Of a stretch of 41,587 nt of DNA, positions 6,670 to 40,501 are shown in pieces; the first letter of the stretch is position 1, and every line of letters begins with the position of its first letter. Origin of the DNA: an uncultured Clostridia bacterium (GTDB taxonomy: Bacteria > Bacillota > Clostridia > Lutisporales > Lutisporaceae). The translations under genes were made by a program, and so were the position numbers. The DNA lies in NCBI GenBank assembly GCA_937930535.1, contig CALGKJ010000040.1:1-41587 (forward strand), given 5' to 3'. Below the pieces are notes generated by a model that worked only from the letters and a program-made list of their open reading frames with translations, ran no database searches and was not told the origin of the DNA.

Positions 6670-7146
6670 ATGGAGCTAAGTTTAATAAGGTCATTTCGGA
6701 AGGATTTAAGAAGGCTAGAGCGAGAGGTGGGGCGAAAGCTTAAGGATGACACCGAGTGTTGTGGTGTTACAGTGTCTCAGTGCCATGTTATTCTCGAGAT
6801 AGGCAATAAGGGGGAAATGTCAATTGTTGACCTTGCAGGTATTCTTAATGTAGATACCAGCACTCTCAGCCGCAATATTAATAATATGGTAAATCTGGAG
6901 CTTGTTAATAGGGTCACAAATCCTAATGACAGGCGTTATGTATTCGTAGCCCTTACAGCAAAGGGCAAACAGGTGTATGAATCAATCGAGGATATGTGTA
7001 ACCAGTATTATAATAGGGTATTCAGCCATATAGCACCCGAGCTTCATACTCAGGTCATTGAAGCTTTTAAGCTGATAGTCAGTGCAATACTGAAAGCTAA
7101 TCAGGATGAGGATTGTGGCTGCTGTGGTGCGTCAAGGGATACATAA
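6670..7146 (+). CDS. MarR-family transcriptional regulator with cysteine-rich tail
   Basis: The 158-residue protein has the MarR winged helix: VSQCHVILEIGNKGEMSIVDLAGILN, then a recognition helix VDTSTLSRNINNMVNLELVNR and a wing with DRRYVFVALTAKGK. The ATG at 6670 follows AAGGAGG; an earlier ATG at 6610 overlaps the promoter and is rejected. The C-terminus ends DEDCGCCGASRDT, and further cysteines lie before the helix-turn-helix (TECCGVTVSQC), so a thiol-based or metal signal is possible. The gene is 20 bases upstream of hgcA and probably co-transcribed with hgcAB. Known hgcAB loci sometimes carry ArsR-type regulators; a MarR member here is a variation. The ligand is unknown. Confidence 0.88.
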   Translation: MELSLIRSFRKDLRRLEREVGRKLKDDTECCGVTVSQCHVILEIGNKGEMSIVDLAGILNVDTSTLSRNINNMVNLELVNRVTNPNDRRYVFVALTAKGKQVYESIEDMCNQYYNRVFSHIAPELHTQVIEAFKLIVSAILKANQDEDCGCCGASRDT

Positions 7147-7166
7147 TAGTATAAGGAGGTGTCATT

Positions 7167-8288
7167 ATGTCCGAAATAAACAAACAGCACAACTGCTGAG
7201 ACCCATCGGCTTCAGTTGTGTACAACTGCAATAATGAGAAAAAAGATTATATAACCGGCTATATGGATACTCCCGCCGGAAAAATCCCCATTGTATCAAC
7301 TGTCCTGACAAGGGCGGATCACTGGGGGACTGTAAGGGTACGACTGGATATCAAAAGAAATATGTACCGAGTAACTCCGGGACTGTATGCTGTAGGCTCT
7401 CCAACTAAGGATTCTCCAGTGCTAGTTACAGCAAACTATAAGTTGAGCTTTGATATGCTTAGAAAAGAGCTTAAGAAAATAAATGCATGGATAATGGTAT
7501 TGGATACAAATGGCGTAAATGTGTGGTGTGCAGCAGGCAAGGGAACTTTTGGTACTATTGAGCTGTTGAAGCGGATATATCTCACAAAGCTGAAAAGTAT
7601 TGTTTCCCATAATACAATTATACTTCCCCAGCTTGGAGCTGTGGGCGTGTCTGCTTATGAGGTCAGTAAAAAGTCTGGCTTTAAGATAATATATGGTCCA
7701 GTACAGGCTAAGGATATACCAGAATTTATTTGTAATAACTTTAAAGCGACACAGGAAATGAGAAGAATAAGCTTTAACATTTTTGACAGGCTTGTATTAA
7801 CGCCATTGGAGATGGTTCATACCTGGAAGCTTTTAGGGATTATGTTTGTTTCACTGTTTTTATTTAATCTTGCTGGCGGTGAGTTCAGAGGCTTTATGAA
7901 TATACTGAATCAAAGTATTCATAATCTGTTGTTTTATATTGGTGTTGTTATAGCTGGCTGTGTTGTTACGCCGGCACTGCTGCCTTGGATTCCCTCACGT
8001 GCCTTTGCTGTTAAGGGGCTGCTGCTTGGTGTGCTTTGGTCAGGATTTATGCTTATGTATCCTCAGGGCTTTGGCTTTGCAGCTTACAGCTTACTATACA
8101 AGCTTGGTCACGCAATCATTGGAGCTGTTATTTCCTCTTATTTAGCTCTTAACTTTACTGGCTCTACTACCTATACATCCTTTTCGGGAGTACGCAAGGA
8201 AGTAAAGGCTGCGGCTGCACCTATGCTTGCTGCAATGATTGCCGCATTATTATTTATAGCTGTGAGCTTAGTACTATTGTTTGTGTGA
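7167..8288 (+). CDS. hgcA: HgcA, corrinoid protein for mercury methylation, with in-frame TGA at codon 11
   Basis: The protein contains the HgcA signature NVWCAAGK (residues 118-125, counting from the ATG at 7167), whose cysteine C121 is the lower axial ligand of the cobalt corrinoid. The corrinoid domain (about 28-190) is followed by five membrane helices (about 225-373), as in HgcA. HgcA passes a methyl group to Hg(II) with HgcB. The first codons are MSEINKQHNC, then TGA at 7197-7199, then DPSASVVYNC in the same frame. AAGGAGG sits seven bases before this ATG, whereas the first start after the TGA (GTG, 7218) has no ribosome site and lies within a hairpin. The TGA may encode selenocysteine next to a cysteine; otherwise it is a sequencing error or nonsense mutation, and a 356-residue HgcA could start at 7218. 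HgcA identity is firm; the TGA reading is not. Confidence 0.9.
7213..7228 (+). promoter_or_regulatory. Candidate bacterial SECIS hairpin after the hgcA TGA
   Basis: CAGTTG and CAACTG form a 6-bp stem with loop TGTA. The loop begins 19 bases after the in-frame TGA and has G as its second base. As I recall the bacterial SECIS consensus, a loop 16-37 bases after the UGA with G in one of its first two positions is expected, so the fit is good. A competing 8-bp pairing (CACAACTG at 7188 with CAGTTGTG at 7213) would enclose the TGA. The same repeats could instead be a regulator-binding site. Confidence 0.4.
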
Positions 8289-8298
8289 GGTGTATGAA

Positions 8299-8625
8299 AT
8301 GAAAAGCAATAAGCATCAATATCTAAAAAATATGACAACCTTAAAACTGGATTCAGATAAATGTACAGGCTGCGGCATATGTACTACTGTCTGTCCTCAT
8401 AATGTATTTGAGCTTTCAGCGGGTAAAGCTGGTATATTGGATAGAGATAGCTGCATGGAGTGCGGTGCCTGTGCGAAAAACTGCCCTTTTTTGGCGATTA
8501 CTGTGGATGCAGGAGTCGGCTGTGCCTTTGCCATTATAAATGGTATATTGTCAGGTGGTGCGCCTTCCTGTGATTGTGACGGAAGCAGTAAAAAGAAAAA
8601 GAAGAAGAATACTGGGTGCTGTTAA
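8299..8625 (+). CDS. hgcB: HgcB, ferredoxin-like partner of HgcA
   Basis: The 108-residue protein has two [4Fe-4S] motifs (CTGCGICTTVCP at 22-33 and CMECGACAKNCP at 52-63). It also has the HgcB-specific lone cysteine C75 in VGCAF and a terminal cysteine pair C107-C108 behind a lysine run. HgcB is thought to reduce the corrinoid of HgcA and to bind or deliver mercury through these cysteines. A further CDC (C91, C93) may add thiol sites. The ATG at 8299 follows GAGGTG and lies 11 bases after the hgcA stop; an upstream TTG at 8281 would overlap hgcA and lacks a ribosome site. Gene order hgcA-hgcB is the usual one. A hairpin terminator follows. Confidence 0.93.
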   Translation: MKSNKHQYLKNMTTLKLDSDKCTGCGICTTVCPHNVFELSAGKAGILDRDSCMECGACAKNCPFLAITVDAGVGCAFAIINGILSGGAPSCDCDGSSKKKKKKNTGCC

Positions 8626-17549: not shown

Positions 17550-17639
17550 TGGAGGAGAGAGAGGGATTCGAACCCTCGGACGCCGCAAAACGCCTCTGGT
17601 TTTCAAGACCAGCTCCATAAACCGCTCGAACATCTCTCC
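17550..17639 (-). tRNA. tRNA-Ser (anticodon TGA)
   Basis: A 90-base class II tRNA with acceptor GGAGAGA/TCTCTCC, anticodon loop CTTGAAA on a CTGGT/ACCAG stem, long variable arm and encoded CCA. The base before CCA is T instead of the G usual in bacterial serine tRNAs. It is first in a two-tRNA transcript. Confidence 0.95.
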
Positions 17640-17657
17640 TCGGTGACAACAATATAA

Positions 17658-19684: not shown

Positions 19685-20956
19685 TTATTTTTTAATTTTC
19701 TCAATACCCCCCATATATGGTCTTAACACCTCTGGTATCGTTACACTTCCATCATCATTTTGGAAGTTCTCTAGTATTGCCGCTACTGTTCTTCCTATTG
19801 CTACACCAGATCCATTTAATGTATGAATATATTTGGGCTTTTCTTTAACATCTGGTCTATACTTGATTTCTGCCCTTCTTGCCTGGAAGTCCTCAAAGTT
19901 GCTGCAAGAGGATATTTCTACATATTTATTATAGCTTGGCATCCATACCTCTAAATCGTAGGTTTTTGCGGAGGTAAAGCCTAAGTCGCCTGCACAAAGT
20001 GCCGATACTCTATATGGCAGTCCCAGAGATTGAAGTATTCTCTCTGCATCTCTAGTTAAGCTTTCCAGCTCTTCATAGGAATCTTCAGGCTTCACAAACT
20101 TTACAAGCTCTACCTTGTTAAATTGGTGCTGTCTTATAAGTCCCCTTGTATCTCTTCCTGCGGATCCCGCCTCTGCTCTAAAGCAGGCACTGTAAGCAGT
20201 ATGCTTTATGGGCAGTGCATCAGTCTCTAATATTTGCTCTCTGTACATGTTTGTTACTGGTACTTCTGCGGTAGGTATAAGGAAATATTCTGTATTGCTT
20301 ACCTTAAAGGCATCCTCTTCAAATTTTGGAAGCTGTCCTGTTCCCATCATGCTTCTTCTGTGTACCATATAGGGAGGAAATACTTCTGTATATCCGTTTT
20401 CAGTGTGTGTATCCAGCATAAAGTTATAAAGTGCTCTTTCCAGTCTGGCACCCAAGCCCTTCAGGAAGGTGAATCTTGCGCCTGTAACCTTTCCTGCTGT
20501 TGCAAAATCAAGTATTCCAAGGCTTTCACCTATATCCCAGTGTGCCTTTGGCTCATATTCAAACTTTCTAGGCTCTCCCCAGCTTCTAACCTCTACATTA
20601 TCAGCATCCGAGCTGCCATCAGGGGTGTACTCACTAGGCATGTTTGGTATGGTTAGTAATATTTCCAATACCTTTTCTTCCAGCTCTCTCAGCTTCTCAT
20701 CGTCTTCCTTAATCTTATCTGATACCTCACGCATTTCGGTTATCAAGGCTTCTGCATCCTGCTTTGCTCTCTTAAGCTTTGCAACCTCCTCAGATACCTT
20801 GTTCTTCCTGCTCTTAAGCTCCTCTACCTGTACCAGAAGCTGTCTTTTAGCTTCATCCAGTTCAAGTATTTCTTGAATTTTGTACTCCTGCCCTCTACGA
20901 GCAAGCTTTCTTTTTACTTCCTCGGGATTTGTTCTTATTAATCTAATATCCAGCAT
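19685..20956 (-). CDS. serS: Seryl-tRNA synthetase
   Basis: The 423-residue class II synthetase has the N-terminal coiled-coil arm that grips the tRNA-Ser variable arm (about 25-105). Motif 2 is seen as [23 protein letters not shown] and motif 3 as [17 protein letters not shown]. It charges tRNA-Ser, and also tRNA-Sec where present, with serine. The ATG at 20956 has AAGGAGG upstream; an upstream in-frame ATG falls in the leader terminator and is rejected. The gene is controlled by the T-box leader immediately upstream, and two tRNA-Ser genes lie 2-3 kb downstream on the same strand. Confidence 0.97.
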
Positions 20957-20978
20957 TTTTATTCCTCCTTTATATAAC

Positions 20979-21197
20979 AAAAAACCTTTCATCCCCAATA
21001 AAGGGACGAAAGGTTATCCGTGTTGCCACCCTAGTTAGCAGCATATGAATATACTGCTCTCTCATTCGTTTAACGGCTGTGCCGGTACTGCTCGTCGCAG
21101 ACTGCTCCGGGATGGATATCACAAATCCTGTTATCGGCTCTCACCTGCCGCCGACTCTCTAAAAAAAGGATATTGAGACTTTCCCTTCAACGCATTT
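20979..21197 (-). promoter_or_regulatory. T-box riboswitch leader of serS
   Basis: On the minus strand the leader carries AGAGAG, the AGGTGAGA apical loop of stem I, and the T-box sequence AGGGTGGCAACACGG. The terminator is AACCTTTCGTCCC paired with GGGGATGAAAGGTT and followed by six T (20976-21015). Uncharged tRNA-Ser would bind and favour the antiterminator. The specifier may be TCC in the loop before ATCCC, but I cannot fix it by eye. Confidence 0.92.
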
Positions 21198-21402
21198 AAT
21201 AATTTTTATATATCAATAAAGTTATTTTTTATAATTTTACTATTTTTTATACAATATTTCAAGTACTGCTTTTATATTATTTCTAATATTTGCCGAATTT
21301 CTTGTTACTCAGCTACATTTATCTTTAAAATAATCTTTCACAAAGTGTGGCTAGGTATAAAAGCATGTCTATTTGTCAATAATCACAATAAAGACAAGCA
21401 AG

Positions 21403-24102: not shown

Positions 24103-24408
24103 ATGCGAATCGAAGAACATCCGATACTATCCTTCAAAAAAGGTCCTAAAGTAAAATTCACCTTTGATGGACAGCAGTATGAAGGATATGAGGGAGAACC
24201 AATTGCTGCTGCACTGCATGCAGCAGGAGTAAAAGTATTGGGACACAGCCATAACCTTGGAAGACCCAGAGGTTTTTATTGTGCCATTGGCAACTGCTCT
24301 TCCTGCCTCATGGTTGTAGATGGAAAACCCAATGTAAGAGTTTGTGTGGAAAAACTAACTGAGGGCATGATAGTAGAAACTCAAAAGGGGAAAGGTGATC
24401 TGGTATGA
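24103..24408 (+). CDS. [2Fe-2S] subunit, HcnA/SoxA-N-like
   Basis: The 101-residue protein matches the small 2Fe-2S subunit found in hydrogen cyanide synthase (HcnA), opine oxidases and the N-terminus of sarcosine oxidase alpha. Its four cysteines lie in CAIGNCSSC followed twelve residues later by another C (NVRVC), a plant-type ferredoxin pattern. It should carry electrons between the two flavoprotein subunits. The ATG follows GGGAGGG. It overlaps the next gene by four bases (ATGA), so translation is coupled. It is the first gene of a six-gene operon. Confidence 0.9.
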   Translation: MRIEEHPILSFKKGPKVKFTFDGQQYEGYEGEPIAAALHAAGVKVLGHSHNLGRPRGFYCAIGNCSSCLMVVDGKPNVRVCVEKLTEGMIVETQKGKGDLV

Positions 24409-25484
24409 TAAACACAGAGATACTTATAGTCGGAGGCGGTCCTGCCGGACTATGTGCTGCTATCGCAGCAGCCGAATCCGGTGCAAAGGTCACATTGGTA
24501 GAACGTAATGACAGCTTGGGCGGACAGTTGGAGAAGCAAACTCATATGTTTTTCGGTTCACAGAAGCAGTATGCTTCAATCAGGGGTATAGATATTGTCG
24601 GTATTTTGACAAAGGAATTAGATAAGTATAATGAAAATGTTACCATAATGTTAAATGCTACCGTTATTGGAATGTATGAGGACGGTATATTAACAATAGA
24701 ACAAAATGATAAGTATATGAAAGTAAAGCCACAGGCTATAATTGTGGCAACAGGTGCATCAGAAAAATTCTTAACCTTCCCCAACAACGATTTACCCGGT
24801 ATATATGGTGCAGGTGCAGTTCAGACACTTGCTAACGTACATGGCGTACTGCCAGGCAAAAGCATAGTAATGGTAGGTGCAGGAAACATAGGTCTTATCG
24901 TCAGCTATCAGCTTATGCAGGCAGGTATAAAGGTAAAAGCCATAATAGATGCCGCTCCCAAAATCGGAGGCTATCTGGTACACGCATCAAAAATAAGAAG
25001 AATGGGCGTACCCATAATGACTGGGTATACTGTCAAATACGCTCATGGCAAGGATGCACTGGAAAAGGTCACTCTCTGGAAGCTTGACGATAAATGGCAG
25101 CCAATACCCGGCTCAGAAATAGACATAGATACAGATGTATTATGCATATCTGTTGGTCTTTCACCACTGGCAGAGCTTTTGTGGCAGGTGGGCTGTGAAA
25201 TGAAATTCGTGCCTGAGCTTGGAGGTCATGTGCCTACTCGTAATGAGGATTTGGAAACAAGCATTCCTAATGTATTTGTTGCAGGAGATGTTGGCGGAGT
25301 AGAGGAAGCAAGCAGTGCCATGGTAGAAGGAAGGCTGGCAGGACTATGTGCTGCCAAAAAGCTGGGGCATGTACTTCCTGACTACAAAGAGCAAAGAGAG
25401 GACTGCCTAGGTCAGCTTAATGACTTAAGATCAGGTCCAGTGGGGGAAAAGATTAGAAAAGGCTTAGAGCAGTTAATAAGTTAA
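24405..25484 (+). CDS. FAD/NAD(P)-binding oxidoreductase subunit, HcnB-like
   Basis: The 359-residue protein has two dinucleotide-binding folds: FAD at the N-terminus (ILIVGGGPAGLCAAIAAAES) and a second at about 150 (VMVGAGNIGLIVSYQL). The FAD-closing motif NVFVAGDVGG is near 300. This is the pyridine-nucleotide-disulfide reductase-like part of HcnB or opine oxidase subunit A. In those proteins a C-terminal BFD-type 2Fe-2S domain follows; here that domain is on the separate next gene. It should pass electrons from the substrate flavoprotein to NAD(P) or another acceptor. Confidence 0.9.
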   Translation: MINTEILIVGGGPAGLCAAIAAAESGAKVTLVERNDSLGGQLEKQTHMFFGSQKQYASIRGIDIVGILTKELDKYNENVTIMLNATVIGMYEDGILTIEQNDKYMKVKPQAIIVATGASEKFLTFPNNDLPGIYGAGAVQTLANVHGVLPGKSIVMVGAGNIGLIVSYQLMQAGIKVKAIIDAAPKIGGYLVHASKIRRMGVPIMTGYTVKYAHGKDALEKVTLWKLDDKWQPIPGSEIDIDTDVLCISVGLSPLAELLWQVGCEMKFVPELGGHVPTRNEDLETSIPNVFVAGDVGGVEEASSAMVEGRLAGLCAAKKLGHVLPDYKEQREDCLGQLNDLRSGPVGEKIRKGLEQLIS

Positions 25485-25500
25485 GGGGGTTAAGAAAACA

Positions 25501-26277
25501 ATGTTAGAAAAAACAGGAGTAGCTACCCAAGAGGATTTAGCACTCGTTATGCCCTCAAAGGAAAGACTAGCAAAGGGAGCTGTTGCAGTTATAGAATGCT
25601 TTCAGAGGATACCCTGCAACCCATGCTACACTTCCTGCAAAAGAGGTGCCATAATAGAGTTTAAGGATATAAATGACAGACCCATAATAAATGCAGACAA
25701 ATGCAACGGCTGCGGAATCTGCGTAAGCAACTGCCCGGGGCTTGCAATAGTTGTAGTAGACGAAACCTATTCAGATACAGAAGCACTGGTTAAGATACCC
25801 TATGAATTTTTACCGCTGCCACAGGAAGGCGGCTATGTAACTGGTCTTGACAGAGAAGGAAAGCCCGTCTGTAGAGCAAAGGTAGTAAAGGTTCTTAATA
25901 CCAAAGCTCAGGATAGAACGCCAGTAGTATCCTTGGCAGTTCCAAAGGAGCTTTCAATGGTAGTAAGATGCATGAGTCTTGATGATTTTTACAGCGATAA
26001 TACCATGGTATGCCGCTGCGAAGAGGTTACACTAGGAGAAGTAAGAGAGCTTATCAGAAAAGGCTATCATACAATAGATGAAATAAAGAGAATAAGCAGA
26101 GCAGGTATGGGACCATGTCAGGGCAGAACCTGCCGTCAGCTTATTATGCAGGAGCTTGCTCGTGCTACAAATCAAAAAATGAGCGAAATGCCAATGTCCA
26201 CCTTCAGACCCCCTGCAAAACCCATTAAATTAGGTGCTGTTATCAGCAGTCTAGGTGGGGGTGAATGCAATGAATAA
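25501..26277 (+). CDS. Iron-sulfur protein with 4Fe-4S and BFD-like 2Fe-2S domains
   Basis: The 258-residue protein has CNPCYTSC near residue 40 and a [4Fe-4S] motif CNGCGICVSNCP near residue 75. The C-terminal BFD-like domain reads MVCRCEEVTLGEV, then AGMGPCQGRTC, four cysteines for a 2Fe-2S cluster. The BFD part equals the C-terminus of HcnB/OoxA, so the classical subunit is split here and has gained a ferredoxin-type domain that could connect it to ferredoxin. The ATG at 25501 follows GGGGG and starts 16 bases after the previous stop. Confidence 0.9.
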   Translation: MLEKTGVATQEDLALVMPSKERLAKGAVAVIECFQRIPCNPCYTSCKRGAIIEFKDINDRPIINADKCNGCGICVSNCPGLAIVVVDETYSDTEALVKIPYEFLPLPQEGGYVTGLDREGKPVCRAKVVKVLNTKAQDRTPVVSLAVPKELSMVVRCMSLDDFYSDNTMVCRCEEVTLGEVRELIRKGYHTIDEIKRISRAGMGPCQGRTCRQLIMQELARATNQKMSEMPMSTFRPPAKPIKLGAVISSLGGGECNE

Positions 26278-27418
26278 AACTGCAAGTGTGGTTATTATCG
26301 GCGGAGGAATATCCGGCTGCTCTATAGCCTACAGTCTGGCGAAAAAAGGCGTTAAGGATATAGTAGTTGTAGAAAAGGATTATCCATCCAGCGGAGCTAC
26401 AGGAAGATGCGGTGCTGGTGTAAGAATGCAATGGGGCACAGAAATGAATTGCCGCCTTGCAAAATATAGTATAGAGTTTTTCGAAAGAGCCAATGAAGAG
26501 CTTGAGTATGATGGAGATATAGAGTTTAAGCAAAAAGGTTATCTTATAGTAGCTTCCACAGAAAGAGAAGCAGAGCAGTTTAAAAAGAATGTAGCTTTGC
26601 AAAACAGCTTGGGAATCCCTACAAAATTCCTTACTCCAAAGGAAGCCAAGGAAATAATACCTCATATGGATGAATCAAAAATAGTATGTGCTACATTCTG
26701 TCAAAAGGATGGTCACTTAAATCCCTTCCTGACTACAGATGCATATGCTAAAGCAGCTATGAGACTTGGTGTAGAAATAATGAAATATACTCAGGTTACG
26801 GGCATAGAGGTTGAAAACGGCAAAATAAAGGGAGTCCAAACAGATAAGGGATATATTTCTACCCCTGTTGTGGTAAATGCAGCAGGCGGACATTCAAAGA
26901 TAATAGGTGAAATGGCAGGTGTTAATATACCTGTATATGCTGAAAGGCATCAGATATTGGTAACAGAGCCTGTAAATCCAATGCAGGATCCTATGTATAT
27001 GTCCTTCTCCCATAATATTTACTGTCAGCAGACACCTCACGGAAGCTTTATTATGGGCAGAGGTGATGCTAATGAGCCAAGAGACTTGAGACAAACATCA
27101 AGCTGGCATTTCCTTGAGGAAATGGCAAAAACCTGCTGTACTCTACTTCCTCCATTAAAGGATTTAAGAGTTGTAAGACAGTGGGCTGGACTATACTGTA
27201 TGTCACCTGACCGTCAGCCAATATATGGTTCTGTTTCAGCGGTAGAAGGCTTCTATCTGGCATGCGGCTACAGCGGTCATGGATTTATGTTCGGGCCTGT
27301 AACCGGAACTATTATATCGGAAGCTATATTGGGAGAAAAGCCTACTATAGACGTAAGCATACTAAGCAATGATAGGTTTGACAAGGGCGAATTGGTATTC
27401 GAGCCTTCAGTAGTATAG
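26270..27418 (+). CDS. FAD-dependent amine/amino-acid dehydrogenase, HcnC/DadA-like
   Basis: The 382-residue DAO-family flavoprotein starts with SVVIIGGGISGCSIAYSLAK, then SSGATGRCGAGVRMQWG where FAD may be held. It ends with the family motif YLACGYSGHGFMFGPVTG. Relatives oxidise glycine (HcnC), D-amino acids (DadA), sarcosine or opines (OoxB, NoxB). As the substrate-binding subunit it defines the pathway, but the substrate cannot be read from sequence. The ATG at 26270 overlaps the preceding gene by eight bases and has GGTGGGGGTG upstream. Confidence 0.9.
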   Translation: MNKTASVVIIGGGISGCSIAYSLAKKGVKDIVVVEKDYPSSGATGRCGAGVRMQWGTEMNCRLAKYSIEFFERANEELEYDGDIEFKQKGYLIVASTEREAEQFKKNVALQNSLGIPTKFLTPKEAKEIIPHMDESKIVCATFCQKDGHLNPFLTTDAYAKAAMRLGVEIMKYTQVTGIEVENGKIKGVQTDKGYISTPVVVNAAGGHSKIIGEMAGVNIPVYAERHQILVTEPVNPMQDPMYMSFSHNIYCQQTPHGSFIMGRGDANEPRDLRQTSSWHFLEEMAKTCCTLLPPLKDLRVVRQWAGLYCMSPDRQPIYGSVSAVEGFYLACGYSGHGFMFGPVTGTIISEAILGEKPTIDVSILSNDRFDKGELVFEPSVV

Positions 27419-27505
27419 ATTAAAGTTTGTATATAGCCTTGGACTGTAGAAAGAAAATATGTGCTTTTTAAACTCCAAGGCATTCTAATTTTGGGAGGTA
27501 AAAAA

Positions 27506-27886
27506 ATGAAGGTATTAGGTAAAAAGCCGGAGCTTTGCATCGCATGTCATTCATGTGAAACTACCTGCTCCAGAACATGGTTTAAAGAAGCAAACTATGC
27601 TAAATCATGTATCAGCATCAGTAAAGATACAGAAAAGAAGATTACTAGCTGTACACAATGCGGCGAATGTATTGCTGTCTGTCCTGTGGAAGCCTTAACA
27701 AGAGACAAAAATGGCGTAATAAGAGTAAATAAGAAGATATGCGTAGGCTGTTTTATGTGTGTAGGCTTCTGCCCTGAGCTGGCAATGGGTGTACATGACG
27801 ATTACATTGAACCTTTCAAATGTGTAGCCTGCGGACAATGTGCGAAAAGTTGTCCTAGAGAAGCTATTTTTATTGAAGAAATATAA
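27506..27886 (+). CDS. Polyferredoxin subunit linked to aldehyde:ferredoxin oxidoreductase
   Basis: The 126-residue protein has four cysteine clusters: CIACHSCETTC, CTQCGECIAVCP, CVGCFMCVGFCP and CVACGQCAKSCP, enough for up to four [4Fe-4S] centres. Proteins of this form sit beside AOR genes and pass electrons from the tungsten enzyme. The ATG at 27506 has TTGGGAGGTAAAAAA upstream; an earlier in-frame start at 27461 has no ribosome site. An 87-base gap separates it from the flavoprotein gene. Confidence 0.9.
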   Translation: MKVLGKKPELCIACHSCETTCSRTWFKEANYAKSCISISKDTEKKITSCTQCGECIAVCPVEALTRDKNGVIRVNKKICVGCFMCVGFCPELAMGVHDDYIEPFKCVACGQCAKSCPREAIFIEEI

Positions 27887-27916
27887 AACAAAACATAATC
27901 ATTGGGAGGTAAAGTA

Positions 27917-30070
27917 ATGAATATAGAAAAGCTGCAATCTGCCCATAAGCTGCTTAATGAATACAAATATGAGTTGGGTAAGCTTGAAAGAGGATATACA
28001 AATAGAACTCTATACATTAACCTAAGTGATAACACAATTAAAGAAAAGCCTGTTACTCAAATGATGAAGGACAAATTTATAGGCGGCAAGGGCTTTGGTC
28101 TATGGTATCTGTGGAATGCAGTAACACCTGAAACAAAGTGGAATGATCCTGAAAATGAAATAGTAATATCAAGCGGTCCCATAGGCGGCATAACTCAATA
28201 CCCAGGTGCAGGTAAATCCTTGGTAGTAAGCTTGTCACCGCTAACTGGAATGCCAATAGACAGCAACGTGGGCGGTTATTTCGGTCCACTGCTTAAGTTC
28301 TCCGGCTTTGATGCTCTTGAGCTTCAAGGAAAAGCAGAAAAAGACGTAATAATATTTATAGATGGTAATGACGGAACAATAACCATAGAAGAAGCTCCAG
28401 AGGAAGCAATAGACAGCCATATCCTTGGTGAACAGCTTACAGAAATGTATGCAAAATCAGAGGAAGACAAGAGAAATGTAGCTGTTATATCAGCAGGTAC
28501 TGCTGCACAAAATACCTTTATCGGACTATTAAACTTTACCTTCTACGATGTAAGAAGAAAGGCAATAAGACTTAAACAAGCTGGTCGCGGCGGCATAGGC
28601 AGAGTATTCAGAGACAAAGGCATCAAGGCTGTTGTAATCAGATTTGAAGGCGTTAAAGGAAACCTAAATAATCCTGCCGATCAAGGCAAGCTTAACAGAA
28701 CAGGAATAAAGCTTCATAAGGAAATACATGACTTTGACGATAAGCAGTGCAGAATGAGACAAATAGGTACTGCAAACATAATCGAAATAATGGATCAGTA
28801 TGATCTGCTACCAGTACACAACTACAAGTATGGTGCTCATAAGGATACTTACAAAATAGCATCAAATGTATTCAGAGATAAAATAACACAAGGCATGGCA
28901 GACGGCTGCTGGTACGGTTGCAGCTTGTCCTGTGCAAAGGCAGTAGACAACTTTGAAGTAAAAACTGGTCCATATAAAGGACAAAAGGTTATAGTTGACG
29001 GACCTGAGTACGAAAATGCAGCAGCCTTAGGCTCAAACGTTGGAATATTCGATCCCGACGTAGTACTTGAGCTTAACTTCTATTGTGATACCTATGCTAT
29101 AGACACTATTTCTTTTGGTACTCTTACAGCCTTTGTTATGGAATGCTATGAAAACGGCATATTAAATAAAGAAAGAACAGGCGGACTTGAGCTTAACTTC
29201 GGCAATGCTGATGCAACACTAGAGCTTATACATCAAATGTCCAGAGGCGAAGGCTTCGGAAAGATAGCTGGTCTTGGAATCAGAAAGATGAAGGAAATAT
29301 TTGCAAAAGAGTACGGCGCAGATCCAAACTTCCTGCAAGATATCGGTATGGAGCAAAAAGGCTTGGAGTTCTCCGAGTACCTTCCAAAGGAATCCCTTGC
29401 ACAGCAGGGCGGCTATGGTCTGACCAACAAAGGACCACAGCATGATGAAGCATGGCTGATATTTATGGATATGGTTAACAACCAGATACCAACCTTTGAG
29501 GATAAAGCAGAAGCACTGCACTACTTCCCAATGTTCAGAACCTGGTTCGGCTTAAACGGTCTCTGCAAGCTGCCTTGGAATGATATAATACCGGAAAGCA
29601 ACAAGACTGCCGACGAGCCGGCAAAGATACCTGAGCATGTACAAAACTATGTAGATATATTCAATGGAGTTACAGGAAAGAACATAGACAAGGAAGAGCT
29701 TATAGTACAATCCGAAAGAGTATACAACTTCCAAAGAATATTTAATATTAGAATGGGCTACGGAAAAAGAATCCACGACAAAATCCCATATCGTGCAGCA
29801 GGCCCTGTAACAGTTGAGGAATATGAATCAAGACAGGAAAGATATGACAACCAGTTAAAGGATATTATAGGCGTTGACCCAACAGGCAAATCAACAGAAG
29901 AAAAAATAAAAATAATGAGAGCTTACAGAGAAGATCAATACGAACAACTAACAGATGCAGTATACAAGAGAAGAGGCTGGACAATGGACGGAGTACCGAC
30001 AGTTGAGCACCTTCAAAAAATAGGTATGGATCTTCCTGAGGTTGTTGAGGTTGTAAAGCAGCATTTGTAG
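27917..30070 (+). CDS. Tungsten-dependent aldehyde:ferredoxin oxidoreductase
   Basis: The 717-residue protein has the AOR-family N-terminus (FIGGKGFGLWYLW, SGPIGG), the pterin-binding-region motif GRGGIGRVFRDKGIKAVVI, and cysteines for the [4Fe-4S] cluster in CWYGCSLSC with a late one in GLNGLCKLPW. It is about 100 residues longer than classical archaeal AOR. AORs oxidise aldehydes to acids and reduce ferredoxin using tungsten bispyranopterin. The ATG at 27917 follows TTGGGAGGTAAAGTA. It ends the operon and is followed by a strong terminator. A decayed second copy of its 3' part lies at 32408-32824. Confidence 0.93.
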   Translation: MNIEKLQSAHKLLNEYKYELGKLERGYTNRTLYINLSDNTIKEKPVTQMMKDKFIGGKGFGLWYLWNAVTPETKWNDPENEIVISSGPIGGITQYPGAGKSLVVSLSPLTGMPIDSNVGGYFGPLLKFSGFDALELQGKAEKDVIIFIDGNDGTITIEEAPEEAIDSHILGEQLTEMYAKSEEDKRNVAVISAGTAAQNTFIGLLNFTFYDVRRKAIRLKQAGRGGIGRVFRDKGIKAVVIRFEGVKGNLNNPADQGKLNRTGIKLHKEIHDFDDKQCRMRQIGTANIIEIMDQYDLLPVHNYKYGAHKDTYKIASNVFRDKITQGMADGCWYGCSLSCAKAVDNFEVKTGPYKGQKVIVDGPEYENAAALGSNVGIFDPDVVLELNFYCDTYAIDTISFGTLTAFVMECYENGILNKERTGGLELNFGNADATLELIHQMSRGEGFGKIAGLGIRKMKEIFAKEYGADPNFLQDIGMEQKGLEFSEYLPKESLAQQGGYGLTNKGPQHDEAWLIFMDMVNNQIPTFEDKAEALHYFPMFRTWFGLNGLCKLPWNDIIPESNKTADEPAKIPEHVQNYVDIFNGVTGKNIDKEELIVQSERVYNFQRIFNIRMGYGKRIHDKIPYRAAGPVTVEEYESRQERYDNQLKDIIGVDPTGKSTEEKIKIMRAYREDQYEQLTDAVYKRRGWTMDGVPTVEHLQKIGMDLPEVVEVVKQHL

Positions 30071-33906: not shown

Positions 33907-35520
33907 CTACTCCGAATCCTTCTCAAATAATCCTATTATATACTCATACAGCCTTATAATATAATCCTCTTGATTATAGTTAAACAGCTTCGCTTTTTTT
34001 AGCTTATCATCACAGCTATTCTCATTATTAGTCAGAAAAATGGTATTAACAGACTCATTAATATTATCAATATCCCCAGCATCAGCTATTAAAATTCTTA
34101 TATCAATTTCCAGCCTTTGTTCTGCAACTGATATACATTTACTATCTGATTCTGCATTTATCCCCAATATAATCAAATCAGGGCTATTTACCTTATATAT
34201 ACCCTTTAGAAGGCTTATACTTTTTTCATTTATTTGGTGTTTTATAAACTCCACCCCAGAAACTTCTAAAGCGGCAATATTGGATACGGCTGTAGGGTAG
34301 TATCCCTTTGCTTCAAATTGATTTTTAAGCATTAATAATGTATCTGTTAATTTATTGCCAGTATAATCGTATACTGCTATTATTGGTACTTCAATTTTAA
34401 TTCTGCTGGATCCATAGTATTTTTTAATCCATTGAGGAGTCCATATTCTTTGTCTTATATTCCTTAATACCTGACAATGTATCCTCTCATTATGATTACC
34501 AATAAAAACTATATTTTTTTCATATGCAAGCAGTTTTTTAATAAGCTTGCTTAGCGAAATGTCTGCTTTTTCACAAGCTTTACCCTCAGCATTTATTACT
34601 ATTGTATCTATTTGCGATACAATATCAGCATTGTTATTAATATATTCTGCTATAGCAGAGTAAATTTCAGAGTAATTGAATTTCTTAATGCTTTCTGCTT
34701 GTACAGCTTCAAAAAAACAGCTTTCACGCCTTAGGGGATATTTCGCAGCTTCCAAGTTAAATATTAAAGCCTTTTCTACCCAATTCATATCTCTGCTTAC
34801 AAAGGTATAAAGCTTTTGTCTGCCTGCATTTTGGGCATTTCTTTCCAGCTCTATTTTTATTTCTTCCAAGGTTATAAGAGGATACTTTTCCATCAGCTTG
34901 CCTACCTCTGCTGTAATAAGAGGAGCTGCGTAGCTGTTGGCAGGAAAAACCTCCGTTTCTGCTCCATCAAATGCCTTAAGCTTATGCCTTCCGCAAGCAC
35001 TTATCTCTATACCATCTAAGGGATAATGATTAAATATATATTGTCCTTCTTTTAAAATACCTTTTCTATCACTCTTTACTCCTATTACATTTAAAAGGGA
35101 TGCAGGATAGGTTTTTATCATTTTATTACTGCAAGCCGCTACAATAATAACACCTTTTTTATATGCGTAGTTTATGATTTTTCTGATTTGTTCAAAGCTT
35201 GTATAATCAATAGTGCCAAGACTTAGGTTTAAAAGCTTGATGTTGTTTTCTACACACCACATTACGGCCTTTAAAAACTGCTGAACATTGCCCTTGCCTG
35301 TATCACCCAGCACCCTGATATCGCTTAACACTGCATCTGAATAATACTTCTTTATTATGGCTGCTACATTTGTACCATGAAGCTCCTGAACAAAATTATC
35401 ATCAGTGTCATTACTTATATTCAGCTCAGGAGATATTTTGACTCTATGAAGAGGCTGTCCAAGATTATACAAACCCTCGTCTATTCCATTGTCTATAACT
35501 GCAATATTTACTCTGCCCAT
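33907..35520 (-). CDS. S8 (subtilisin-like) peptidase of the Clo7bot cluster with extra C-terminal domain
   Basis: Residues 1-225 form a subtilase: catalytic D10 (VIDNG), H48 (LHGTN), oxyanion N132 and S196 (NSYAAP). There is no signal peptide or propeptide, so it acts in the cytoplasm or with the exporter. Residues about 300-470 are a separate domain with VPIIAVYDYTGNKLTDTLL and PDLIILGI, which resemble VLFVAGLAERTNK and PDIIIIGI in the TIGR04066-like protein of the same cluster. It starts three bases after the ABC transporter stop, so the two are coupled. It probably removes the leader of the cysteine-rich precursor. Confidence 0.88.
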   Translation of the reverse strand: MGRVNIAVIDNGIDEGLYNLGQPLHRVKISPELNISNDTDDNFVQELHGTNVAAIIKKYYSDAVLSDIRVLGDTGKGNVQQFLKAVMWCVENNIKLLNLSLGTIDYTSFEQIRKIINYAYKKGVIIVAACSNKMIKTYPASLLNVIGVKSDRKGILKEGQYIFNHYPLDGIEISACGRHKLKAFDGAETEVFPANSYAAPLITAEVGKLMEKYPLITLEEIKIELERNAQNAGRQKLYTFVSRDMNWVEKALIFNLEAAKYPLRRESCFFEAVQAESIKKFNYSEIYSAIAEYINNNADIVSQIDTIVINAEGKACEKADISLSKLIKKLLAYEKNIVFIGNHNERIHCQVLRNIRQRIWTPQWIKKYYGSSRIKIEVPIIAVYDYTGNKLTDTLLMLKNQFEAKGYYPTAVSNIAALEVSGVEFIKHQINEKSISLLKGIYKVNSPDLIILGINAESDSKCISVAEQRLEIDIRILIADAGDIDNINESVNTIFLTNNENSCDDKLKKAKLFNYNQEDYIIRLYEYIIGLFEKDSE

Positions 35521-35523
35521 TAC

Positions 35524-37290
35524 TTAACTAACTCCCTTAAGGTTTGCTTCCTGACTAACCATTTCTTTGTAAAAGCTGTCTTTAGTATACAACTCTTCAT
35601 GTGTGCCTATATCCTTTATTTTACCATTGGACAGTAGTATCACCTTATCCATTTGCTTTAATATATCTGGTTTATGGGTTATGACTATTATGGCTTTATC
35701 GTTAAATTCGTTACCAAGCAATTGATTAACCTGATATTCTGATTCATAATCATAATTCGATGTAGCTTCATCCAGAATAAGTAGTTTTGAGTTTTTTACA
35801 AAGGCTCTTGCCATAGCTACCTTTTGTCGTTCTCCTCCCGATAGTCTCATACCATTGTTTCCCACATTGGTACTATACTTGTCCTGCAATGCCGTAATAA
35901 ATTTATCCGCTCCGCTTTTTCTGGAAGCTCTATATATTTCTTCCTCAGATGCTCTTGAATTCAAGGCTATATTTTTCTTGATATCTGTATTAAAGAGATA
36001 AAATTCCTGACTGACAATAGATATTAAGCTTCGATAATCCTTTAGCTTTATATCCTCTATATTTATTCCGTCCAGCAAAATTCTTCCTTTGGAAGCATTG
36101 CAAAATCTCAATATAAGATTGATTATGGTAGATTTTCCCGAGCCATTGCTGCCTACTATGGCGATTTTTTCACCCTTTCTAACCTCAAAGCTGATATTAT
36201 TTAACACATTTTCTCCTTCTTTATATGCGAAGGATACATTTTCAAAGCTTATATTTCCCACTACCTTATCAGAGCTGTATATTCTGATTTTATTATCTCC
36301 TTCAAGCTCTGCTTCGCTTTTCATATCCAAAAACTCAAAATATCTCTTTGCAGAGGGTATTATATTAGAAAAGCTGTACCCGATATTTAATATTGCATAA
36401 ATAGGATTAGTAACATAGGAGCTGTAGGTTATAAATGCCATCAAGCCTCCAATAGTCAGGCTGCCCGGAAAGAATATCATATATGTACCAATTATATAAA
36501 GGGCATTTGACATAATTCTTGCCGCTGCTGCCTCAGAAAACTCATTAAATTTATCTAGCAGTGCAAGCTTTATTTCAAATTTTACAAGCTTTTTCCGCTT
36601 CCTTATATACTCACCAATCTTAATTTGATCCAAGCCCCACAGCTTTACTTCTTTTATCCCTGCCATAGTATCACCGTACCATGACGAAAACTCCCTATTA
36701 TGCTCTATATACTCCTCCAGCATTTTTCTTCTTTTTCTTGCAAAATATTTTACTAATATATATCTTGGGGGTATTATTATTGTTACCAGTATGGTCAGCT
36801 TCCAGTTAATCAGTAAAAGTCCTGCCATACCGCCGATGAGTCTAAAAACTTGTGCAATTATAAAAAAGGTACTGCGATCAGAAATCCTTGATATATTGCC
36901 TGCATCCATGTTTATATTACTCATTATTTCCATAAAATTTGCGTTTTTGAAATAATCCATATTTAATTTCAGAGACTTCTTAAAAGCCATTTTTGATAAT
37001 GTGAAATTCATTACAGAGTGTATATATGAAAGATATTTTGTCTCTATAATGCTTATTCCCTGCTCAATTATCAATAATAGTAATGTAAATAAAGATAAAT
37101 ACACAACTAATGCAAAGTCACTTTTCAGCAAGCCCTCATCCATCATTGTTCTGCTTATTAGGGGCATAATCAAGCCTATGCCCGCCGAAATAATTATGCA
37201 GATGATTATTCCCACTATTTTTTTAGTATATGGCTTTAGCAGAGACAATACCCTTTTTATAATAGCATAATCTTGTTTTGAAATTTTCAT
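35524..37290 (-). CDS. ABC transporter with fused membrane and ATPase domains (peptide exporter)
   Basis: The 588-residue protein has six membrane helices in residues about 15-300 and an ATPase domain with Walker A GSNGSGKST, signature LSGGERQ, Walker B LLILDEATS and switch histidine in VITHKPD. It has no N-terminal C39 peptidase, which fits with a separate S8 peptidase gene immediately downstream. It most likely exports the modified Clo7bot peptide. The ATG follows TGGGGGAT. A hairpin with a T tract lies between it and the upstream gene at 37416. Confidence 0.93.
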   Translation of the reverse strand: MKISKQDYAIIKRVLSLLKPYTKKIVGIIICIIISAGIGLIMPLISRTMMDEGLLKSDFALVVYLSLFTLLLLIIEQGISIIETKYLSYIHSVMNFTLSKMAFKKSLKLNMDYFKNANFMEIMSNINMDAGNISRISDRSTFFIIAQVFRLIGGMAGLLLINWKLTILVTIIIPPRYILVKYFARKRRKMLEEYIEHNREFSSWYGDTMAGIKEVKLWGLDQIKIGEYIRKRKKLVKFEIKLALLDKFNEFSEAAAARIMSNALYIIGTYMIFFPGSLTIGGLMAFITYSSYVTNPIYAILNIGYSFSNIIPSAKRYFEFLDMKSEAELEGDNKIRIYSSDKVVGNISFENVSFAYKEGENVLNNISFEVRKGEKIAIVGSNGSGKSTIINLILRFCNASKGRILLDGINIEDIKLKDYRSLISIVSQEFYLFNTDIKKNIALNSRASEEEIYRASRKSGADKFITALQDKYSTNVGNNGMRLSGGERQKVAMARAFVKNSKLLILDEATSNYDYESEYQVNQLLGNEFNDKAIIVITHKPDILKQMDKVILLSNGKIKDIGTHEELYTKDSFYKEMVSQEANLKGVS

Positions 37291-37335
37291 AAGTATCCCC
37301 CATTATATCCTTACTCTTACTTGCTCTTATAAATT

Positions 37336-37382
37336 GAAAAAGCCTGGATATAACCTTGCATTTGTATTATACATTCCAGGCT
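37336..37382 (-). terminator. Hairpin with T tract inside the Clo7bot cluster
   Basis: On the minus strand AGCCTGGA pairs with TCCAGGCT around a 26-base loop and is followed by TTTTTC. It could end or reduce transcription between the modification genes and the export genes. Confidence 0.6.
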
Positions 37383-37415
37383 GGTATCAGAATTTTAAGC
37401 TTCATCAGTTTATTC

Positions 37416-37691
37416 TTATTTGCTTACTTCCTTGTATATTATATCCGCTACGTTATTAAAGGTCTTAAATTTGCCAGTTCCCACATCTTCCTGTGGTATG
37501 GCTATATCAAATTCTCTTTCTACATCATGGTAAATGTACAGCAAATCTCTTGCAGACATCATAAATATATTTCCTAAAAACTCTTCATTAAGAATATGGT
37601 CTTCGGCATTTTTCAAATCAATTCCAAATCTTTTATAAAATACAGCCTTTAGCTTGTCTACTATTTCCTGACGATTTATTTCCAGTTTCAT
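37416..37691 (-). CDS. Acyl-carrier-related protein of the Clo7bot peptide maturation system
   Basis: The 91-residue helical protein is shaped like an acyl carrier protein (VDKLKAVFYKRFGID, then a middle segment, then FNNVADIIYKEV). Where the phosphopantetheine serine of a real carrier (DSL) would be, the region reads FMMSARDLLYIYHDVE with no DSL. It matches the ACP-related family known only from Clo7bot-like clusters (TIGR04069-like). Without the DSL motif it probably acts as a binding or scaffold protein. AGGAGAGGATAGG precedes the ATG. Confidence 0.82.
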   Translation of the reverse strand: MKLEINRQEIVDKLKAVFYKRFGIDLKNAEDHILNEEFLGNIFMMSARDLLYIYHDVEREFDIAIPQEDVGTGKFKTFNNVADIIYKEVSK

Positions 37692-37737
37692 ATTCCTATC
37701 CTCTCCTCAATATAATACCATAATTATACATAATTTT

Positions 37738-38901
37738 CTATATTGCGTCAATATCGCCATATCCTGAAAGCACATCTATAATATAGTTGGTCATATCGTA
37801 TGCACTACTAGGATTTTGCATATTGTATACAGGCGTACTCAAGACTTTATACTGTTCTATCTTTTCATCAATAAACCTATAGTCAATTGTTGTATAATAC
37901 TCCTTTGACTTTTCTTTTGAAGTAGTCCAGTCAAAGCTTATGTTTGACATATTAAAACAAGTAATACTACATCCAAGCTTGTATTTTATTGAATTTTGAA
38001 GAAGCTCAAAATATTGATTATTATACATATTATATAATACACTAAGTATTAATGCATCGGCATTTACAGCTCTGGAAATAAGGTATCCCATCACGCCAAA
38101 GTGACCAGTAAAGCTTTTATTTAAAGGCATTATACCATCAGGTATACCTATAATTATTATATCAGGCTTTTCTGCACATTCTATTCTTTTAACAAACCAG
38201 TTGAATAATAGTATTTTTTTATGCTCTGGTATTGAAGGCTCAAACATGAAGCTGGGGATGGAGTGAAAACCCATAAGCTCACAATAGCTTCTGCTGCCTA
38301 CTTGACTGACCTTATAACCTAGCTTTTGCAGGTTATTTCTAAGATCAAGCTGTATTTGAAATTTGTTTGTCCTCTCCGCCAAGCCAGCTACAAATAGCAC
38401 TGGAGTTTCTATGTCATATATTTTATGATTGTCTCTTTTCTCAGTACAGTCTAAAGAATCTCTGAAATCTGATATTTTAGAAGGTCTTTTTAATACATTG
38501 TAATATTTTATGGCTGTGTTATTATCTATACAGAGTTTCTCAATATTATTATACAGTTCATCCTCTAGTTGCATTGTGCAAATAATATTCTTTCCTGCTT
38601 TTACTGCTTTTTCTATATTGGGTCTCATTATGCTGTAGTCAAGCTTATAAATGGATTCTGCCAGCAAAACTGCATCACAGACTTTTAATGCTTCATCAAA
38701 GCTGTCACTTACTTCTATTCCGATATATTCTCCGCCATCGGCCCATGCTGCATCCCTCCCTGCCGGTCCCCAGCCGTACGGAGCTACAAGCCCTGTTATC
38801 TCATACTGCTCTATAAGCTCTCTATTTCTTAAAACAGGGGCAAACTGAGCACTATAGGGATATACCATTACTTTTTCTTTCGCTCTTTCTTTTTTAACCA
38901 T
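37738..38901 (-). CDS. TIGR04066-like peptide maturation protein
   Basis: The 387-residue protein has an N-terminal region with PYGWGPAGRDAAW and CDAVLLAES, then a core (167-260) with TPVLFVAGLAERTNKFQIQL and PDIIIIGIPDGIMPL. This is the layout of the TIGR04066 family, found only beside Clo7bot-type precursors. No canonical P-loop is seen. The biochemical role is unknown. The core is similar to the C-terminal domain of the S8 peptidase of the same cluster. TGGAGG precedes the ATG. Confidence 0.85.
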   Translation of the reverse strand: MVKKERAKEKVMVYPYSAQFAPVLRNRELIEQYEITGLVAPYGWGPAGRDAAWADGGEYIGIEVSDSFDEALKVCDAVLLAESIYKLDYSIMRPNIEKAVKAGKNIICTMQLEDELYNNIEKLCIDNNTAIKYYNVLKRPSKISDFRDSLDCTEKRDNHKIYDIETPVLFVAGLAERTNKFQIQLDLRNNLQKLGYKVSQVGSRSYCELMGFHSIPSFMFEPSIPEHKKILLFNWFVKRIECAEKPDIIIIGIPDGIMPLNKSFTGHFGVMGYLISRAVNADALILSVLYNMYNNQYFELLQNSIKYKLGCSITCFNMSNISFDWTTSKEKSKEYYTTIDYRFIDEKIEQYKVLSTPVYNMQNPSSAYDMTNYIIDVLSGYGDIDAI

Positions 38902-39034
38902 TGCAATTCCTCCATCTTATATAGAAAGCACTAAGTATCCTATATTATTTAACTACTAACATGTGCTTTCTATCAAATATAAATGTCATATCATACTTTA
39001 GATTATGTGAAATCTTTATTGGCATTTATATAGC

Positions 39035-40501
39035 TTAGAACTCATATAAATTTATGGCATCTGCTCTGTTAAAATCGTGTCCCAGTTCTCTTAAAACACA
39101 ATAATCTAAAAGCATTTGGTGTGCATCCAGTCTTGTATTTTCACAATGCTTCAGCTTTGCTTCTTTACTTAGCTTTGTACCGTCATCCGCCGCTACCGCA
39201 CATATCTTGCAGTATCTAAATGCCCAGCAGTTTATACAGCTTTCCTTTGTCAGCCTGCCTACATTAATAATATTTGAGACCTTAGCAATATCAATCCCAC
39301 TATCTATATGTCCCATTTTCAATGCTTCTGATTGCTCGTTTACTTTCTCACAGGGATAAATATTCCCATCAACATCAATAAATAGTTTTTTGATTCCCGG
39401 CAGACAAGGACCGCTGTGATGCTCCATATCAGATAAGCTTTCTGATATATACCTGTTTTTATAAAGCATTTCCTTTGTATAGGTATAGTAGTCTGTTACA
39501 AGCTTTGAGGTATATTTACTATCTAGTCTTTTGTCTGCAAATAAGAAGAATTTAAAGTATTCATATTGAATTTCTTTATAATAATCTACATTGAAATCTA
39601 CTTCCTTATCATCCTTTAAATTAATTGTGCTGTAGGTTCCTCCCTTGCAGTATGAATCCTTTATTGCTTCAAAGGTAGTAAAGAATTCATTTGTACACTT
39701 GAAGCCATCCTCAGGATCTAAAACAGCATTAAACATTATTTTATTTGAATATTCGGGGTGTCGCATTTTTAATATTTCAATATTTTTAATTATGGCATCA
39801 AAGGTGCCTATATTATTGGCTGCGAACCTTCTATTTTTATTATGTATTTCATAAGGTCCGTCAAGGCTTATGAGCATCTGTACTTTATGCTCAGCAAAAT
39901 AATCCATTATTTCTTCTGTTAGTATTGTTCCGTTTGTTGTTAACCCAAAGGTTATTTCCTTGCCTTGTCCCCTTTCCAGGGTATATTCCATACAGGTCTT
40001 AACAAATTGGAATTCCAATAGCGGCTCTCCGCCATAAAACCCTAAGTGAAATTCGTTTGTATCCTTAGATCTGCTTAATGCAAAATCAATTGCCTTTTTA
40101 GCTGTTTCAATACTCATTTTTTTATTTGAATGATGCCTGTTTTCATATGCACCTGAATATATGCAATATTCACATCTTAGATTACACTGCTGAGTTACCT
40201 GCAGCGTCATGGTGCTAATCCTGTTGTTTAGTATATATGGCAGAAGCTCAGTAGCACCATGCTGCACTTCGATAATTCTTTTAGCCGAAAGCAAGCCTTG
40301 TTTTTTCAGCTTATTAATTTCTTTTAGTGCCTCCTTCTCTTCAGCACTACACTCTTTTTCTGTTATTGTCTGACTTAACATCTTTTGAAGCATATCCCAA
40401 GCCTGTTTGGTTGTAGTTATAATATAGTTTTTATTTACATCATAAACATAGTAGCACCCATGAGTTTTAAAAAGATGAATTAAAGGTTTATCATTATACA
40501 T
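39035..40501 (-). CDS. Cys-rich peptide radical SAM maturase (CcpM-like)
   Basis: The 488-residue enzyme has a precursor-binding-like N-terminal region (1-85), the radical SAM motif CNLRCEYC (C106, C110, C113) and FGLTTNGT. A SPASM-type C-terminus carries cysteines in CLPGIKK, GNIYPCEKV, CINCWAFRYCKIC and HCENTR for auxiliary clusters. SPASM enzymes of this type make thioether or other bonds at cysteines of ribosomal peptides. Its substrate is the seven-cysteine peptide encoded immediately upstream. AGAGGAATG precedes the ATG. The bond it forms has not, to my knowledge, been determined for this family. Confidence 0.92.
   Translation of the reverse strand: MYNDKPLIHLFKTHGCYYVYDVNKNYIITTTKQAWDMLQKMLSQTITEKECSAEEKEALKEINKLKKQGLLSAKRIIEVQHGATELLPYILNNRISTMTLQVTQQCNLRCEYCIYSGAYENRHHSNKKMSIETAKKAIDFALSRSKDTNEFHLGFYGGEPLLEFQFVKTCMEYTLERGQGKEITFGLTTNGTILTEEIMDYFAEHKVQMLISLDGPYEIHNKNRRFAANNIGTFDAIIKNIEILKMRHPEYSNKIMFNAVLDPEDGFKCTNEFFTTFEAIKDSYCKGGTYSTINLKDDKEVDFNVDYYKEIQYEYFKFFLFADKRLDSKYTSKLVTDYYTYTKEMLYKNRYISESLSDMEHHSGPCLPGIKKLFIDVDGNIYPCEKVNEQSEALKMGHIDSGIDIAKVSNIINVGRLTKESCINCWAFRYCKICAVAADDGTKLSKEAKLKHCENTRLDAHQMLLDYCVLRELGHDFNRADAINLYEF

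What the first reader, a model, noticed from the sequence alone, without database searches (positions are those of the whole stretch)
7167..7228. In-frame TGA in hgcA: a possible selenocysteine mercury-methylation protein
Seen: an ATG with AAGGAGG opens MSEINKQHNC, then TGA, then the HgcA frame continues without a break. The first possible start after the TGA (GTG at 7218) has no ribosome site and is inside a hairpin. A 6-bp hairpin has its loop 19 bases after the TGA with a G in the second loop position, which fits the bacterial SECIS rule as I recall it. Known: selenium binds mercury more strongly than sulfur, and HgcB has a C-terminal cysteine pair. Inference: HgcA may carry a Cys-Sec pair at its N-terminus for mercury binding.
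Basis: partly seen in the sequence, partly recalled or inferred. Interest (0 to 1): 0.9.

Follow-up and report, generated by a model that had tools for sequence, protein, structure and literature searches.

The report
Selenocysteine-containing HgcA mercury-methylation gene
The in-frame TGA near the start of this mercury-methylation gene almost certainly encodes the rare amino acid selenocysteine, giving the enzyme a Cys-Sec pair on a flexible tail; this type of HgcA was already described in 2023, so this is one more example of a known kind.

Summary
Confirmed. An hgcA gene opens at ATG 7167 behind AAGGAGG, hits TGA at 7197-7199 (codon 11, directly after a Cys codon), and continues in frame to 8288. 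The genome encodes tRNA-Sec and a selD-selA-selB operon. Of 122 hgcA loci read with TGA=Sec, 20, from Bacillota to Desulfobacterota, carry TGA in the same N-terminal motif (CU); 70 have Cys-Cys and 32 lack the pair. In an alignment of 16, Sec falls on a column otherwise always Cys. Hairpins at the bacterial SECIS distance follow 18 of the 20 TGAs but 7 of 69 Cys codons at that motif (rank test p=5e-10, uncorrected for kinship). Readthrough as Sec is the best reading; error, pseudogene and late start are poor alternatives. It is not new: Haft and Gwadz (J Bacteriol 2023) described selenoprotein HgcA and HgcB, and a 2026 review lists HgcA (NF040863) with motif 'CU'. The predicted structure leaves residues 1-23 disordered, so the pair sits on a mobile tail, like the C-terminal Cys pair of HgcB. 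Its use for mercury handling is plausible but untested. By-catch: a cysteine-rich MarR regulator (CCG motif) lies upstream of hgcA in many unrelated genomes.

The parts
7153..7159 (+). Shine-Dalgarno sequence AAGGAGG for the upstream hgcA start
   Evidence: sequence; ribosome sites also precede the starts of the nine other full-length TGA-containing hgcA genes examined
7167..8288 (+). hgcA, corrinoid protein of mercury methylation, 373 aa with Sec at codon 11 (stop TGA 8286-8288)
   Evidence: NF040863 equivalog 421 bits, cut-off 275; alignment A1
7194..7199 (+). TGC TGA = Cys10-Sec11 pair, the 'CU' motif
   Evidence: same motif in 20 of 122 hgcA loci, Cys-Cys in 70
7213..7228 (+). bacterial SECIS-like hairpin, 6-bp stem, loop UGUA with G at position 2, 19 nt after the UGA
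8299..8625 (+). hgcB, dicluster ferredoxin; here GVGC (Cys where some relatives have Sec) and C-terminal Cys-Cys
   Evidence: NF040864 124 bits, cut-off 99
6670..7146 (+). MarR-family regulator just upstream (20 bp between its stop and the hgcA start), with a CCG motif and a cysteine-rich C-terminus; probable regulator of hgcAB
   Evidence: co-regulation is inferred from position and conservation

Best explanation
The gene encodes a selenoprotein form of HgcA. Ribosomes start at ATG 7167. At UGA 7197 the SelB/Sec-tRNA-Sec complex, recruited by the hairpin at 7213-7228, inserts selenocysteine as residue 11, next to Cys10, and translation goes on through the corrinoid domain and the membrane domain. 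The first ~23 residues form a disordered tail, so the Cys-Sec pair is a mobile thiol-selenol ligand. It most likely takes up Hg(II) or hands over Hg(II)/methylmercury near the cobalamin, as the C-terminal Cys pair of HgcB is thought to do. Strongly supported by comparison: the gene, the Sec machinery, conservation of the CU motif and the hairpin statistics. Predicted only: the disordered tail. Inferred: actual Sec insertion in this strain, metal binding (about 0.5 likely), and dependence of mercury methylation on selenium supply. The confidence given is for Sec insertion, not for the role of the pair.
For: Complete Sec system in the same genome: tRNA-Sec (UCA) on C96; selD-selA-selB on C136:7282-11694, with selD itself holding an in-frame TGA. 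Of 122 hgcA loci, 20 have CU, 70 CC and 32 neither; four members of the same family (including this one) and distant Bacillota and Desulfobacterota share CU. In alignment A1 the Sec column is Cys in all six Cys-type sequences. Ribosome sites precede the start codons upstream of the TGA. SECIS-like hairpin score >=13 in 18/20 Sec loci vs 7/69 Cys controls, 9% of background TGAs. selA is found in 12/12 genomes with Sec-type HgcA or HgcB against 17/27 other hgcA genomes (Fisher p=0.013). The tail, residues 1-23, has pLDDT <50. In HgcB, losing both C-terminal Cys cuts methylation by 95% (PMC7305189).
Against: No protein-level evidence. The hairpin in this particular gene is modest (background 2-5%, fold z=-0.71). 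32 of 122 HgcAs have no N-terminal pair, so the pair is not essential to the chemistry. [quoted passage not shown] The statistics are not corrected for shared ancestry, and the hairpin score was defined after seeing one member.
Confidence: 0.93

Rival explanations
1. The TGA is a true stop. HgcA starts downstream (GTG 7218 or ATG 7263), and the 10-codon upstream reading frame is a leader or an accident.
For: Without Sec decoding this is what standard annotation would give; some HgcAs lack the N-terminal pair.
Against: Neither start has a ribosome site; GTG 7218 lies in the hairpin; ATG 7263 cuts into the first predicted strand. The upstream ATG has a strong site, and the CU motif with an upstream ribosome site recurs in distant genomes.
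Confidence: 0.04
2. Sequencing or assembly error, or a pseudogene with a nonsense mutation of the second Cys codon.
For: TGA is one base from TGC/TGT; the genome is a draft of 252 contigs.
Against: TGA occurs at this motif in 20 distinct hgcA loci, the rest of the frame and hgcB are intact, and the whole Sec system is present.
Confidence: 0.02
3. TGA is read as another amino acid (Trp or Cys) through a changed code or suppressor tRNA.
For: The frame is open either way.
Against: Genes of the window end in TGA (hgcA itself, 8286-8288), a UCA tRNA-Sec with SelA/B/D exists, and the column is Cys in relatives, never Trp.
Confidence: 0.01

Closest known systems
Selenoprotein HgcA (NCBIfam NF040863, motif 'CU'; Haft and Gwadz 2023 J Bacteriol 205:e0025922, as listed in PMC13188914)
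   Same: Same family and same CU motif
   Different: No difference found. The original paper is not held, so residue-level comparison with its examples was not possible; here HgcB is the Cys form.
Selenoprotein HgcB (NCBIfam NF040864, motif 'GVGU')
   Same: Partner gene; several relatives carry Sec in both proteins (L040, L079, L080, L097, L133)
   Different: In this window HgcB has GVGC, so only HgcA is the Sec form.
Cys-type HgcA with N-terminal CC or CCC (e.g. L020, L028, L034, L082)
   Same: Same protein, same position of the pair, 45-48% identical to the window
   Different: Cys instead of Sec; most lack a SECIS-like hairpin at that place.

Membership tests
HgcA (mercury methylation corrinoid protein) | Match to NF040863 above the curated cut-off | tested here: met
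   421 bits against 275
HgcA (mercury methylation corrinoid protein) | Cap-helix motif N(V/I)WCAAGK with the Co-ligating Cys | tested here: met
   NVWCAAGK, Cys121 with the Sec residue counted
HgcA (mercury methylation corrinoid protein) | hgcB directly downstream | tested here: met
   NF040864, 124 bits against 99
HgcA (mercury methylation corrinoid protein) | Methylates mercury | not testable with these tools
   Needs culture or purified protein
Bacterial selenoprotein | In-frame TGA that aligns with Cys in homologues | tested here: met
Bacterial selenoprotein | Sec machinery (selA, selB, selD, tRNA-Sec) in the genome | tested here: met
Bacterial selenoprotein | SECIS hairpin just 3' of the UGA with G in the first two loop bases | tested here: met
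   Present here; alone only at the 2-5% level; strong across 20 loci
Bacterial selenoprotein | Sec present in the protein | not testable with these tools
   Needs mass spectrometry or 75Se labelling

The most novel reading that the evidence does not exclude
In this lineage selenium supply gates methylmercury formation. Without Sec, HgcA stops at codon 10, so hgcA translation (and perhaps coupled hgcB) acts as a selenium switch. The Cys-Sec tail of HgcA works together with the Cys tail of HgcB as a two-armed carrier of Hg(II) or methylmercury, under a mercury- or thiol-sensing MarR regulator.
Probability: 0.3. Interest if true: 0.6.

Novelty: new member of a known kind. Interest (0 to 1): 0.3.

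Why it matters
Methylmercury is a major neurotoxin and HgcA makes it. If the Sec form depends on selenium, the selenium-mercury antagonism of sediments would have a direct genetic component in some methylators. Gene callers that stop at TGA will mis-start such genes and miss the Cys-Sec tail. The same TGA in 20 loci over several phyla shows the trait is widespread, which helps choose strains for the first biochemical test.

Tried and rejected
Hairpin stability alone as evidence: not significant for this gene. tRNA-Sec model hit inside the window at 17553-17640: it is tRNA-Ser, anticodon TGA. The first scan of genome contigs with the single protein found nothing; the scan with alignment A1 worked. 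Haft and Gwadz 2023 is not in the library, so it is cited through PMC13188914. Changed genetic code, pseudogene, late start: rejected, see rivals. No fold search was run: the family is clear from sequence.

Full report
Observation. The sequence is as described. AAGGAGG (7153-7159) precedes ATG 7167 by 7 nt. Ten codons (MSEINKQHNC) lead to TGA 7197-7199. The same frame runs on to 8288 and encodes HgcA (NF040863, 421 bits against a cut-off of 275). hgcB follows at 8299-8625 (NF040864). The hairpin has a 6-bp stem (7213-7218/7223-7228) and a UGUA loop 19 nt after the TGA. On its own it is weak: 2.2% of all TGAs in the window and 5.2% of the TGAs in the loci that carry a Sec-type hgcA are followed by one as good, and the RNA is no more stable than its shuffles.

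Genome. The genome holds a tRNA-Sec with anticodon UCA (C96) and adjacent selD, selA and selB (C136:7282-11694). selD itself carries an in-frame TGA, a known trait of many selD genes (general knowledge), so this would not be the only selenoprotein gene of the genome. The Sec-tRNA hit in the window itself is a tRNA-Ser.

Relatives. In three other genera of the same family the gene begins MTEVKKQNC-TGA, MTDQNKKINC-TGA and MAEISNKKSC-TGA (G003, G005, G017). More distant genomes of the class and phylum give CU as well (L039, L040, L079, L080, L084; L085 has CDU). A scan of one genome per species with alignment A1 returned 80 loci, among them Desulfobacterota MAGs and the isolate Anaeromonas frigoriresistens with CU. 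In all, of 122 hgcA loci, 20 are CU (L085 with CDU counted here), 70 CC and 32 without a pair. The named and unnamed collections may overlap, but the 20 Sec loci have distinct sequence around the TGA. In alignment A1 the column of the TGA is Cys in all six Cys-type proteins. All ten full-length Sec-type genes checked have a ribosome site before the start upstream of the TGA.

SECIS. With one fixed score (loop 13-30 nt after the TGA, G in the first two loop bases), 18 of 20 Sec loci reach 13 or more, against 7 of 69 Cys loci at the aligned codon and 9% of background TGAs (one-sided rank test p=5e-10). The stems differ in sequence while the loop stays 16-22 nt after the TGA and mostly begins GG, AGG or UG. 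Kinship between loci was not corrected for. selA is present in 12 of 12 genomes with Sec-type HgcA or HgcB and in 17 of 27 other hgcA genomes (p=0.013).

Mechanism. Readthrough as Sec is thus well supported by comparison. What the Cys-Sec pair does is inferred. AlphaFold2 puts residues 1-23 below pLDDT 50, so the pair sits on a mobile tail in front of the cobalamin domain. HgcB has a comparable tail with a Cys pair, and losing both Cys there costs 95% of activity in ND132 (PMC7305189). Selenolates bind mercury more tightly than thiolates (general knowledge). The likeliest role is capture or hand-over of Hg(II) or methylmercury; redox protection of Co(I) or of the cap-helix Cys is possible. A quarter of the HgcAs seen lack the pair, so it is an accessory, not part of the core chemistry.

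Known or new. The 2026 review PMC13188914 lists HgcA (NF040863) as a selenoprotein with motif CU and HgcB (NF040864) with GVGU, from Haft and Gwadz 2023. PMC11588087 also cites the idea that some hgcA and hgcB homologues are selenoproteins (its reference 19). The library holds no test of Sec in HgcA that I could find. The finding is therefore correct and is one more member of a known kind.

Side finding. The MarR gene just upstream (6670-7146) has homologues (38-60% identical) upstream of hgcA in 15 loci from different phyla, 14 of them ending 263-428 nt before the codons for NVWCAA, that is, next to the hgcA start (L099 is further off). A CCG motif is invariant in all 16 and most have further Cys at the C-terminus. 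A MarR-family regulator beside hgcA has been noted for Dethiobacter alkaliphilus and Geobacter daltonii (PMC10349881), and an unnamed putative regulator upstream of hgcAB in 112 genomes (PMC7438021) may be the same or another family. A role as thiol or metal sensor is a guess from the cysteines.

Noticed in passing
window 6670-7146 (+): MarR-family regulator with an invariant CCG motif and cysteine-rich C-terminus lies upstream of hgcA here and in 15 other loci over several phyla; candidate thiol- or metal-sensing regulator of hgcAB.
   Followed up: partly
L040, L079, L080, L081, L082, L097, L133, L150: HgcB reads GVGU (in-frame TGA at the conserved GVGC cysteine after the second cluster motif), in five cases together with a Sec-type HgcA and in three with a Cys-type HgcA.
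   Followed up: partly
L085 (G671), HgcA N-terminus: Motif is Cys-Asp-TGA instead of Cys-TGA, with a good SECIS-like hairpin: a possible CxU variant.
   Followed up: no
window 33907-40501 (-): Subtilase, ABC exporter, 387-aa protein without a Pfam match and a radical SAM protein in a row: looks like a peptide natural-product (RiPP) cluster.
   Followed up: no
window 24405-30070 (+): FAD oxidoreductase, BFD/ferredoxin protein, DAO-type oxidase, ferredoxin and aldehyde ferredoxin oxidoreductase (AFOR) genes in a row.
   Followed up: no
window 20999-21199 (-): T-box leader (Rfam 110 bits) directly before a seryl-tRNA synthetase gene (19688-20998).
   Followed up: no
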